Source of the DNA: Daedaleopsis sinensis
Lineage: Eukaryota > Basidiomycota > Agaricomycetes > Polyporales > Polyporaceae
DNA: 64,000 nucleotides
Direction: 5' to 3'
Assembly (NCBI GenBank): GCA_033807695.1
Contig: CM066300.1
Location: 1,674,001-1,738,000 of the forward strand
Notes under the pieces: generated by a model
What the model was told of the DNA's origin: nothing
What the model saw: the letters and a program-made list of their open reading frames with translations, nothing else
Database searches by the model: none
Shown: positions 17,816 to 21,372 of the stretch, piece by piece
How the letters are laid out: every line of letters starts with the position of its first letter
How positions within the stretch are numbered: position 1 is the stretch's first letter
Made by a program: the position numbers and the translations under genes

Positions 17816-20800
17816 TTACTCGATCATATCCGCCCAGTACTCGAGCTCATCGTCAATATCATTATCAGGCTCGTCCCGGATGTAGGGCAGCTCTTGGGGC
17901 TTGTCCATGTACTGCGCCATCCACTGGAGCACCCGTGGATGCGCGCGGACCCTACAGATCGGGATCGCGAAGGGGCCAGGCTCAGAACGGCAGGAGGGAA
18001 CACACGAGAAAAAGCACGCACTTGCTCGGGTCGAAGTTGAGCACCTGGAGGCTCTCCATGCGCGTCGCCCGCGAGAGCGCGACGTATGCTGCAGATGCAG
18101 ATGCACACGCGCGTGAGCACGTCCGCATGAGCGGCGAAGATAAGCAAGGCCGCCACGCACCTTGTCCCTTCTCGAAGATGTTGTTGAGGTCGACCCGGAC
18201 GCGCTCCAGCGTCTGGCCCTGCGACTTGTGGATGCTCAGGGCCCACGCGAGTATCAACGGTATCTGCTCGCGCACGGCCTCGATGTTGCCCTCGGCGTTG
18301 ATCACCTCGAACGAGAGCGGCACACAGAGCATTAACGGCCCGCTCTGGAACTGCACGCACGGCCAGAGGGTGTTCAGCGCGAGGATTGCCTTGATTTTCT
18401 GCTCCCGCTGGGGGTCCCCGAGCGCATCGGTCAAATGTCCCGGGCCACCACTGCCGCCCGCCCTCCCGGCCTGTCCCTGTCCTTGGCTCCTAATGAGCTG
18501 CTGGGCGCCCTGGTAGTCACCGCGGTTTTCGGGCAGCCCGATTATCGCACCCATCGCGACCGCCTCGCGAGGCCTGTAGAAGCCGACGACGCGTCCGAGG
18601 GAGCCGTTGACGAGCACGCCTTGGATGATGTTCTGTAGGGGATTCACGAGCGGTGGGTGAGACTTTCGGCGAGTGGGAAGTCGGAAGACATCTACGTACC
18701 TTGATCAACATCACCTGGGCGCCCACCTTGAGGTGGACATACGGCAGGGCAATCATGTCGTTGAGGGCACGCTCGACGCGCTGGCGGGGGTATGGCTCGC
18801 CGTTCTCGTCTCGGCCAGCTGTGTCCAGCGCTCTATAAGGCCTAGATTCGCCCGCTATCATTGCCAGACGTTGTGCGTTCGCGCTCTCGACCTCTTGACG
18901 TTTGGGATATCTGACGACCGGGAAGGACGCCACTGTCAGGACCATTACGCTCAGACATGGAGAGATCGCTCACAGCTCGGTCGGCAGAAGGTCGTCGTTG
19001 TACTTGACGGTCCGCGCAAGCAACCGGAAGGATTTCGTGGTGGGACCGTCGAGTCGTCCGAACCGCATCGCATTCAACATGTCGACGAACTCTGCAGGAA
19101 CATCAACACTCAGACTGTCAGCGATACGCAGCGGCCGGGAGGATCGGGAAGACTCGCTCTGATCTTTTTGCCGGAAGACCTTCTGCAAGATGATAGGAGG
19201 GCCCACACATTTCTCCCAAGACTCTGAATCGAACGCGAAACACGGTGCTATCTGTGCGCCTGTCCCGCTCTTGTCGGGGACCGGCGGGAGTTGGCAAAAG
19301 TCACCCGACAAGACGAGCTGTGCGGCGCGAGAAGGTTCAGCGAAACATTGGATGCAACAGCGACTACTCCGTCTGACCTGAATCCCGCCAAACGGGAGCG
19401 CGTTCTTCCTCAGCTGGCGCGCAATATATTCCTGAGCCACGGACGTCAGCATAGCACATATGACGCCGCGACGCCGGCACTCACGAGTTTATCGAACAGC
19501 TTCCCATCGATCATCGAGACTGCACGGCACTCGGTCTAGGTCATGCACCACAGCAGCAACAAGGTAAACACGCACTCTCGTCGATGATCAGCGTCTTTAC
19601 ATTCCGCCACCGGTCGAGCACCTTCGACTTGCACGTCTCGGACGGGTCCGTGTGCAAGAACGCGAGCTCGTTCTCGTCCAACCGCACGCCCCTGTTCTTC
19701 CGCGCCCACAGCTCCCGGCGCAGCTTCAGGTCCGCCTTGTACGCGCGCGCGTGGATACCGAGGATCTTCCCGACGAGCCCGTCCGCGTCGTCCTTGCCGA
19801 GCCCGATGCCCGCCCACGAGTGCAGCGTGCAGCCGCCGATGTTGATCGACGCGATCCCCGTCGACGCGGTCACGCCGAGCGTCTTGCTTGGGTGGCCCCC
19901 GAAGTGCTCGATGATCTTGCGGAGGAGGACGGACTTGCCGGTACCCGCAGACCCGGTGAAGAACACGCTCTCGCCGTCTTTGACCTTGCCGAGCACGTAC
20001 AGCTGGTCGGGCGAGAGCTGGATGTCGGGGGCTGGCGCGCTCGGGAGCGTCCCCTCGGGCGCGACCGGTGCAGGAGGTTCCAGCCCGTTTGCTGTCTGTT
20101 CTTCCGTCTTGACGATGCCGTTTTGTAGAGCCTGAGGAGGGGCAGGGGATCGATCGCGGTCCAAGCTCGAGGTCGCCGACAGAGTGGCAGACTGAGCTCG
20201 GGAGGCCGACGGTGTCGAGGATGCAGACCCATTCTGGAGACGGGCTACATACCCGGTAGGAGGGCCCGGCAGTATCTCAATGTCCGAGTCGTAGGCATAG
20301 TCACTCGCATTCTCGGACACCGGCGTCCGACTTGGGGTCCGGGTGGGAGTCGACCACTGAGCATCGGGCGGGGGTCCATCAAGGAGCTCAATATCATCAT
20401 CGTCTACATCCATAGCTCCTATTTATTAAGGGGGGTGTTCGTCGAGCTCGTCAGCCAACGCACTGGACAACGCTGCTGAGAAGCTTACCTTCATAAGGTG
20501 ACGCTGGGGCCTGTGGGGGAGCGAGTGCTTCCGCGACACCTTGTAACCACGCCTGCGCCTCTCCTGGCGTTCGGAAACTCTTGTATTTCACGTTAGACAC
20601 CCTCGACACCTACAGAAATTCATCCAGCAGTCAGCACCATGCATATGTATAGTGAGGATACTACGCACATTAGCTTTCGCCTGGTCCACACGCGTTGTAG
20701 GGTCAACATGGCGTCGCCTCGTGAGATAACTGCAGCACGCCCACCTCGTCCCAGCTAGTGTAGATTTGGGTACCCTGCCGACCTTCATATACCGCATAGT

Positions 20801-20816
20801 ACTTGTGGTTTGTCAT
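17816..20816 (-). CDS. Pif1-family DNA helicase with N-terminal RNase H1-type hybrid-binding domain
   Basis: 5'-3' superfamily 1B helicase. Exons: 20745-20816, 20669-20680, 20489-20609, 19576-20418, 19485-19519, 19378-19431, 19158-19317, 18974-19091, 18700-18910, 18161-18632, 18022-18088, 17816-17951; 766 aa. Residues 1-60 (KYYAVYEGRQGTQIYTSWDE, AKAN, VSRVSNVKYKSFRTPGEAQA) match the viroplasmin/RNase H1 N-terminal fold that binds RNA-DNA hybrids. A disordered linker follows. Helicase motifs are Walker A GSAGTGKS (224-231), DEISMIDGKLFDKL (Walker B), LVLSGDFCQLPPV, the Pif1 signature region VFRQKDQKFVDML, PTELYPKRQEVESAN, SIHKSQGQTLERV and AYVALSRAT. Exon 2 is 12 nt, and intron 7 (19092-19157) is read as GC-AG. 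Pif1 helicases act at R-loops, G-quadruplexes and telomeres, and in mitochondria. No targeting peptide is evident on this form. Confidence 0.88.
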
Positions 20817-21080
20817 CGCACTAATAAGACGGTCCAAGGCTAGTCGTGAACAGCCGGTGTGGATTGCAGACCCGAGGGAGGTGGTGGTCAGGAGCAAGCT
20901 GCACAAAGTCCGCGTGCCCATTGTCGCCCTGGCACGACCAAGCGCCGAAACGACGCGTCGCGCACCATCACGTGCTCGAGTCGCGTTTTAAATGAGTGCA
21001 CAGCATTCTGGAATCTGAGATCTGAGATCTGACTCGGACGCGTCGAGTCCCTTCGCATTGAGTGCGTCCCGAGCAAAGAA

Positions 21081-21089
21081 GGGGGAGTT
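21081..21089. repeat. Target-site duplication, left copy
   Basis: GGGGGAGTT directly precedes the terminal inverted repeat and matches 9/9 the sequence after the element at 21373-21381. Confidence 0.8.
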
Positions 21090-21372
21090 TAGTCTCGTAA
21101 CCAGACGGTATAGGGAGGGCTCTCTGTTTGGGAGGCGGAGATCGAAAAACCCAAACACAGAACCGTCCTATAACGTCTGGTGAACTTCGTATAGATGGGT
21201 GGGGGTATCCCAAATATAGCGCTCGAGGAGCACTATGACGCAAGCGCTCTGAGGGGATACCCCCACCCCTCTATACGAAGTTCACCAGACGTTATAGGAC
21301 GGTTCTGTGTTTGGGTTTTTCGCACTCCGATGCCCCTTTCGGACAGTTCCTATACGTCTGGTTACGAGACTA
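21090..21372. mobile_element. Non-autonomous inverted-repeat element (MITE) with 9-bp target duplication
   Basis: The ends are perfect 18-bp terminal inverted repeats: TAGTCTCGTAACCAGACG at the left and its reverse complement at 21355-21372. GGGGGAGTT flanks it directly at 21081-21089 and 21373-21381. Long inner arms (about 21133-21205 and 21250-21322) are also near-perfect inverted repeats, so most of the element could fold into a hairpin. It has no coding capacity. A 9-bp duplication is characteristic of Mutator-like transposases, so mobilisation in trans by a MULE is the leading inference; the terminal sequence alone does not prove the family. Intact ends and duplication suggest recent insertion. 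Confidence 0.85.

What the first reader, a model, noticed from the sequence alone, without database searches (positions are those of the whole stretch)
17816..20816. Hybrid-binding domain fused to a Pif1 helicase
Three small 5' exons (72, 12 and 121 nt) splice in frame to add an RNase H1/viroplasmin-type domain to the N-terminus of a complete Pif1 helicase. Pif1 enzymes preferentially act on RNA-DNA hybrids, and the RNase H1 N-terminal domain binds such hybrids. The fusion would give a helicase its own R-loop targeting module. I know Pif1 and RNase H1 as separate proteins and cannot tell how widespread this fusion is.
Basis: partly seen in the sequence, partly recalled or inferred. Interest (0 to 1): 0.75.

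Follow-up and report, generated by a model that had tools for sequence, protein, structure and literature searches.

The report
Mushroom Pif1 helicase with hybrid-binding domain
Many mushroom-type fungi carry a second form of the DNA helicase Pif1 whose front end is the RNA:DNA-hybrid-binding module of RNase H1, which probably tethers the helicase to RNA:DNA hybrids; the combination looks old and conserved, its function is untested here, and the open-access papers we searched do not describe it.

Summary
A 12-exon minus-strand gene (17816-20816) encodes 766 residues: an RNase H1-type hybrid-binding domain (HBD; PF01693, 54.6 bits, E 1.2e-14) from exons of 72, 12 and 121 nt, a low-complexity linker and a complete Pif1 helicase. 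Among the 120 best-listed database relatives, 56 carry a near-complete HBD and about 15 a partial one, in at least six orders of Agaricomycetes. In helicase-only trees they share one clade with the window gene (100/99 in a 44-row tree rooted on ordinary Pif1), apart from Pif1s of ascomycetes, two Pucciniomycotina, Tulasnella and the window genome's own second Pif1, in which no HBD was found. So this is an Agaricomycete paralogue, not a one-off. Five relatives lack exactly the four residues of the 12-nt microexon and two run on into the next intron, which supports that exon. Hybrid-contact residues Y29, R35, W43 and K59 (human numbering) are mostly kept; K60 is Ser or Gly in 54 of 57 rows. Best reading: the HBD tethers the helicase to RNA:DNA hybrids. 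Binding and function are untested. Eight literature searches on the fusion found no description. New variant of a known kind.

The parts
20745..20816 (-). exon 1 (72 nt): ATG and first half of the HBD, residues 1-24
   Evidence: models P0077, P0093 and P0113 leave the family sequence at this exon end with a V codon, as in read-through of a GT donor (inference)
20669..20680 (-). exon 2, a 12-nt microexon coding AKAN (residues 25-28)
   Evidence: five of 57 aligned rows lack exactly these four residues; P0006 and P0050 keep them and then run on
20489..20609 (-). exon 3 (121 nt): second half of the HBD and start of the linker, residues 29-69
20547..20804 (-). genomic span of the HBD (residues 5-49), introns 1 and 2 inside
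   Evidence: PF01693 54.6 bits, E 1.2e-14; 3bsu E 4.3e-6
19576..20418 (-). exon 4 (843 nt): linker (about residues 54-200), Walker A, up to Walker B LIIDE; holds a possible internal start MDVDDDD
19485..19519 (-). exon 5 (35 nt), Pif1 helicase
19378..19431 (-). exon 6 (54 nt), Pif1 helicase
19158..19317 (-). exon 7 (160 nt), Pif1 helicase; GC donor behind it
18974..19091 (-). exon 8 (118 nt), Pif1 helicase
18700..18910 (-). exon 9 (211 nt), Pif1 helicase, into the 2B domain
18161..18632 (-). exon 10 (472 nt), end of 2B match, variable insert, motif KSQGQT
18022..18088 (-). exon 11 (67 nt), motif YVALSRA
17816..17951 (-). exon 12 (136 nt), C-terminus and stop

Best explanation
The gene is an Agaricomycete Pif1 paralogue fused to an RNase H1-type HBD; the ordinary Pif1 is a separate gene in the window's genome. 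Shown: the fused reading frame, its conservation, its clade, its exon structure. Inferred: the fusion arose before the orders of the class split; the HBD, on a long low-complexity leash, binds RNA:DNA hybrids (R-loops, perhaps RNA primers or telomerase RNA on DNA), holds the 5'-3' motor there and so helps it strip the RNA. It would supply, with a folded module, a hybrid preference that yeast Pif1 draws from its disordered N-terminus by another route.
For: Complete HBD and complete Pif1 motor in one frame. Of 120 listed relatives, 56 have a near-complete HBD (40 or more profile positions of my own model) and 15 a partial one; independently, 61 of 120 rows show precomputed PF01693 by my count of the listing. 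Helicase-only tree of 125 rows: 101 rows in the HBD clade (56 near-complete, window included, 15 partial, 30 without; SH-aLRT 90), 19 in the ordinary clade (0 with); a careful tree of 44 chosen rows splits 28 from 16 at 100/99. Pairwise identity 0.44 in the HBD against 0.07 in the linker (1596 pairs of 57 rows that were chosen for having an HBD). Contact residues in 57 rows: Y29 53, R35 53, W43 48, K59 as K 47 or R 7. Predicted Coprinopsis HBD is b-b-a-b-a, pLDDT 83-97 in residues 11-50, 38-50 in residues 61-90. Of 23 tabulated 'lgn' rows with a full or partial HBD, 8 lie on contigs too short for the window's 700 nt of introns, as spliced transcripts would be. Premises in print: PMC8998199, PMC6628001, PMC8677849, PMC3999857 (passages).
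Against: K60, which contacts DNA phosphate (PMC9603397, passage), is S 41, G 13, A 1, T 1, K 1 of 57; the W43/K59/K60-A mutant has dramatically reduced hybrid affinity (PMC8677849). Seven of eight HBD rows of an 18-row sub-clade lack W43. Thirty of 101 clade rows show no HBD; some are truncated models (P0028 against P0024 of one locus tag; P0049 starts inside exon 3), others may be real losses. P0011 and P0014 start at an exon-4-like ATG. In yeast, removing the N-terminal domain lowered hybrid stimulation but raised binding to the hybrid fork about 5-fold (PMC6628001), so a tether is not the only way. No binding, localisation or genetic data were available.
Confidence: 0.65

Rival explanations
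1. The fusion is real but the HBD is now mainly a protein-interaction or general nucleic-acid tether (for instance to RPA-coated DNA, dsRNA or dsDNA) without preference for RNA:DNA hybrids.
For: K60 replaced in 56 of 57 rows, W43 lost in a sub-clade. RNase H1's HBD region is also reported to contact RPA (recalled, no call).
Against: Y29, R35, W43 and K59 kept in most rows; the RPA contact that I recall uses R57, which is not conserved here (commonest V 14, I 10, S 7, K 6 of 57).
Confidence: 0.2
2. Exons 1-3 are a separate small upstream gene or non-coding; the helicase is translated from the ATG in exon 4.
For: The exon-4 ATG is in frame; models P0011 and P0014 begin at a similar place.
Against: Unbroken frame and splice sites; the same N-terminus in 56 of 120 relatives; short contigs that hold the fused frame.
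Confidence: 0.05
3. The gene is a mobile-element product: a Helitron-type Pif1 that captured a viroplasmin domain.
For: A Pleurotus Helitron carries a viroplasmin-domain gene, capE (PMC4289320, passages); the genome has 86 PIF1 matches, many in very long frames that I take for Helitrons without testing them; a palindromic repeat lies just upstream.
Against: Best match is cellular Pif1 (yeast E 4.7e-106, Helraiser 9.3e-17); gene of twelve exons without a close second copy, near a RhoGAP gene; no Rep domain among the families listed.
Confidence: 0.03

Closest known systems
Pif1 family helicases (S. cerevisiae Pif1, human PIF1)
   Same: Whole Pif1 motor; closest solved sequences and folds are Pif1s (for the Coprinopsis model).
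   Different: Yeast Pif1, Rrm3 and Pfh1 have N-termini with mitochondrial signals, human PIF1 has its signal in the C-terminus (PMC8998199, passage); that they lack an HBD is recalled. The window gene lies in a separate clade from ascomycete Pif1s.
RNase H1 (HBD of human 3bsu, yeast 1qhk)
   Same: Full HBD profile match; Y29, R35, W43 and K59 kept in the window.
   Different: No RNase H catalytic domain found; K60 is Ser; exon borders differ from this genome's RNase H1-type genes, whose HBD is split at or just after the tryptophan (ORFs only, splice sites not modelled).
Second Pif1 gene of the same genome (C5:3140907-3142420)
   Same: Pif1 helicase, pieces 36-87% identical to the window gene.
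   Different: No HBD match above noise in the 8 kb examined and none on contig C5 among 17 genome-wide PF01693 hits (such searches see a split HBD only in pieces); groups with ordinary Pif1.
capE of Pleurotus Helitron HELPO1.3
   Same: PF01693 gene in an Agaricomycete (PMC4289320, passage).
   Different: A separate cargo gene, not fused to the helicase.

Membership tests
Pif1 family helicase | PIF1 motor profile with Walker A, Walker B and C-terminal motifs | tested here: met
   PF05970 139 bits and Pif1_2B 28.9 bits, both over cut-off; GSAGTGKS, LIIDE, KSQGQT, YVALSRA in the translation (motif roles recalled)
Pif1 family helicase | closest relatives are cellular Pif1 rather than Helitron or RecD | tested here: met
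   yeast Pif1 E 4.7e-106, Helraiser 9.3e-17; fold rows 1-8 are human, Candida and yeast Pif1 (Coprinopsis model)
Pif1 family helicase | 5'-3' unwinding, hybrid preference | not testable with these tools
   needs enzyme assays
RNase H1-type hybrid-binding domain (PF01693) | profile match over the curated cut-off, whole length | tested here: met
   54.6 bits, positions 1-44 of 44
RNase H1-type hybrid-binding domain (PF01693) | beta-beta-alpha-beta-alpha fold | tested here: inconclusive
   predicted order E9-14 E20-22 H25-32 E39-43 H46-57 in relative P0052; the fold rows covered only residues 96-590
RNase H1-type hybrid-binding domain (PF01693) | contact residues Y29, R35, W43, F58, K59, K60 | tested here: inconclusive
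   window: Y, R, W, Y, K, S
RNase H1-type hybrid-binding domain (PF01693) | binds RNA:DNA hybrid | not testable with these tools
   needs a binding assay
RNase H1 | RNase H catalytic domain | tested here: not met
   no RNase H family among the 21 families listed at E<=1
Helitron RepHel | Rep nuclease domain in frame with the helicase | tested here: not met
   not among the 21 families listed

The most novel reading that the evidence does not exclude
Agaricomycetes have a dedicated R-loop helicase built from two known parts, with a built-in switch: a conserved 12-nt microexon codes the end of HBD helix 1, just before the RNA-binding loop, and its skipping keeps frame, so splicing could toggle between hybrid-binding and non-binding isoforms; Ser or Gly at K60 would tune affinity so that the motor can move on.
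Probability: 0.12. Interest if true: 0.8.

Novelty: new variant of a known kind. Interest (0 to 1): 0.58.

Why it matters
Whether Pif1 helicases act directly on R-loops in cells is hard to separate from their other roles. Here evolution has attached a hybrid-binding module to one Pif1 and left a Pif1 in which no HBD was found in the same genome, so one gene pair allows a clean test. It also offers a natural hybrid-binding helicase as a tool, and shows that gene models can miss a conserved domain that is split by a 12-nt exon.

Tried and rejected
A search with residues 1-100 of the window protein found nothing at E<=1 (73 candidates). That is not evidence of rarity: the helicase-region search found relatives with the HBD; a domain of about 45 residues probably scores too little among 5.8 billion sequences.

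Helitron origin was considered and set aside. Recent exon shuffling from this genome's RNase H1-type genes was considered: exon borders differ, so it is not supported; an old origin from RNase H1 is not excluded. A Pfam scan of two of those RNase H1-type pieces reported only the HBD, no RNase H domain; I call them RNase H1-type from a DGACKGNG motif (recalled). No HBD tree was made, as 45 residues carry too little signal.

The fold search covered only the helicase; the HBD alone was not folded and searched. An in-frame upstream ATG at 20921 would add 35 residues; its hydrophobic moment is no better than shuffles (0.334 against a mean of 0.338), so a mitochondrial signal is not supported.

Limits. 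Only the best 120 of 5616 and of 7876 scored hits were listed. Outside Agaricomycetes the basidiomycetes recognised were two Pucciniomycotina, no Tremellomycetes or Ustilaginomycotina. An ordinary Pif1 beside the HBD form is shown for the window's genome only. P0088 was dropped from the 125-row tree for too little helicase. The 44 rows of the careful tree were chosen by me after the first tree, and the root was set on the ordinary Pif1s; three of those 16 rows are unnamed. My HBD model was seeded with the window and retrained on its hits. The label '<689' printed is wrong; the test used 700 nt. P0121, a further 'lgn' row with an HBD, was not in that table; that 'lgn' means assembled public read sets is my guess. 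Orders are or, where not looked up there, recalled.

Full report
What is there. On the minus strand, 20816 down to 17816, twelve exons join to a 766-residue protein. Introns are 53-72 nt; ten donors are GT, one GC. Residues 5-49 match the whole RNase H1 N-terminal profile PF01693 (54.6 bits, E 1.2e-14); the rest holds PIF1 (139 bits) and the Pif1 2B domain. Nearest solved relatives are the HBD of human RNase H1, 3bsu (E 4.3e-6), and yeast Pif1 (E 4.7e-106).

How widespread. A search with helicase residues 203-480 found 5616 proteins at E<=0.001 among 7995 scored and listed 120. By my count of that listing 61 of 120 show precomputed PF01693. My own HBD model, seeded with the window, human and yeast domains and retrained on its hits, matches at i-E<1e-3 in 71 of 121 rows, window included; 57 rows, window included, cover 40 or more profile positions. 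In 51 of these 57 the match starts at residue 8 or earlier. Carriers include Phanerochaete, Fibroporia, Grifola, Coprinopsis, Hypsizygus, Pleurotus, Paxillus, Rhizopogon, Dentipellis, Coniferiporia and Serendipita. Orders looked up: Boletales, Russulales, Polyporales, Agaricales, Hymenochaetales, Sebacinales. A second search from the Serendipita protein added 70 listed proteins, many of them ascomycete; 3 of 70 have the HBD, P0121, P0123 and, degenerate (20.5 bits), P0124 of Ceratobasidium, Cantharellales.

Its place in the family. A helicase-only tree of 125 rows has 101 rows in one group (56 near-complete HBD including the window, 15 partial, 30 none; SH-aLRT 90), 19 in another (18 database Pif1s without HBD and the window genome's C5 gene; 93), four divergent own paralogues, and one long-branched row, P0009. 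A careful tree of 44 chosen rows separates 28 HBD-clade rows from 16 ordinary Pif1s (ascomycetes, two Pucciniomycotina, Tulasnella, the own C5 gene and three unnamed rows) at 100/99. So the window's genome has both forms. The 30 rows without HBD are partly truncated models (P0028, P0049) and partly, perhaps, real losses.

The microexon. In the HBD alignment five of 57 proteins (Paxillus, Dentipellis, Phlebia, Ephemerocybe, Coniferiporia: five orders) lack exactly the four residues coded by exon 2. Amanita P0006 and Bondarzewia P0050 keep them and then run on through what reads as the next intron; P0077, P0093 and P0113 leave the family sequence right at the end of exon 1 with a V codon. Without DNA of these species this is inference, but it agrees with a 12-nt exon at this place in several orders. 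Whether skipping is biology or gene-finder error cannot be told here. In the Coprinopsis model the four residues (28-31) lie in helix 25-32, just before the loop that corresponds to the RNA-binding loop D51-A55 of human RNase H1 (PMC9603397, passage).

Is the HBD functional? Mean pairwise identity over all columns is 0.44 in the HBD, 0.07 in the linker, 0.52 and 0.58 in two helicase parts (1596 pairs of rows that were chosen for having an HBD). By human numbering G34 is kept in 57 of 57, F61 in 56, Y29 in 53, R35 in 53, W43 in 48; position 59 is K 47, R 7, Q 2, A 1; position 60 is S 41, G 13, A 1, T 1, K 1; position 58 is H 29, F 10, Y 7, G 7 and others. The window has Y29, R35, W43, Y58, K59 and S60. 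W43 and F58 form the DNA groove and Y29, K60 and R57 hold phosphates (PMC9603397, passage); the W43/K59/K60-A mutant has dramatically reduced hybrid affinity (PMC8677849, passages). So most of the site is kept and one lysine is consistently changed. In a sub-clade, P0067, P0075, P0078, P0079, P0083, P0085 and P0118 have lost the tryptophan too, while P0095 keeps it.

Is it one transcript? No RNA of this species was at hand. Of 23 tabulated 'lgn' rows with a full or partial HBD, 8 lie on contigs too short to hold 700 nt of introns besides the coding frame, as spliced mRNA would be.

How it likely works. [quoted passage not shown] yet the truncated form bound that fork about 5-fold more tightly, so the yeast domain is not a simple tether (PMC6628001, passages; also PMC8998199). 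A Pif1 monomer can strip RNA from a hybrid (PMC3999857, passages). In the mushroom form a folded hybrid-binding module on a leash (59-213 residues from the end of the HBD match to Walker A in 48 of 57 rows, 170 in the window) would hold the motor on the hybrid. This is inference.

Is it in print? Eight searches of the open library asked about the fusion or the gene family (two more, asked about residues and hybrid preference). I saw listings only, capped at 20 of 44 and 20 of 583; none of the listed titles or abstract starts describes a Pif1-HBD fusion. The one paper that holds both Pif1 and PF01693 is a Helitron paper in which, in the passages I read, they are separate genes (PMC4289320). Most subscription papers are not covered. 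The domain pair is visible in precomputed Pfam lists: annotated but, as far as these searches reach, undescribed.

Noticed in passing
window 21088-21372: Palindromic repeat (arms 21136-21211 and 21254-21329, 76 nt, 96% complementary) about 270 bp upstream of the ATG; 38 matches in the genome, self and second arms included, several 98-100% identical: MITE-like and perhaps recently active.
   Followed up: partly
window 20816-20921: In-frame upstream ATG at 20921 would add 35 residues; hydrophobic moment no better than shuffles.
   Followed up: partly
G000 C4:3455169, 3474665, 3569789, 3587748, 3284590, 3364342; C11:2002612, 3020657; C7:495948; C6:3604505: Family of HBD matches in single frames (WYVVTAGRRVGIWREW and the like) unlike RNase H1 or Pif1, on C4 in pairs of opposite strand; perhaps akin to HBD cargo such as capE.
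   Followed up: no
L039, L040, L041 (C7:24544-26079, C3:4704177-4705707, C3:4834644-4836156): Three similar copies of a very divergent Pif1-like gene, one about 25 kb from a contig start and one about 35 kb from a contig end.
   Followed up: no
L043 (C7:4302892-4303076 minus, 4307755-4307935 plus) and L042 (C3:4728519-4728721 plus): Two RNase H1-type HBD genes facing away from each other about 5 kb apart, and a third on C3; two of the three were seen to be followed by a DGACKGNG motif (recalled as RNase H), though Pfam reported only the HBD.
   Followed up: partly
related proteins P0042/P0118, P0030/P0089, P0044/P0056, P0038/P0046/P0101, P0005/P0017/P0036/P0054: Several species list two to four genes of this clade with near-by locus numbers or the same longest contig length, suggesting tandem duplication.
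   Followed up: no
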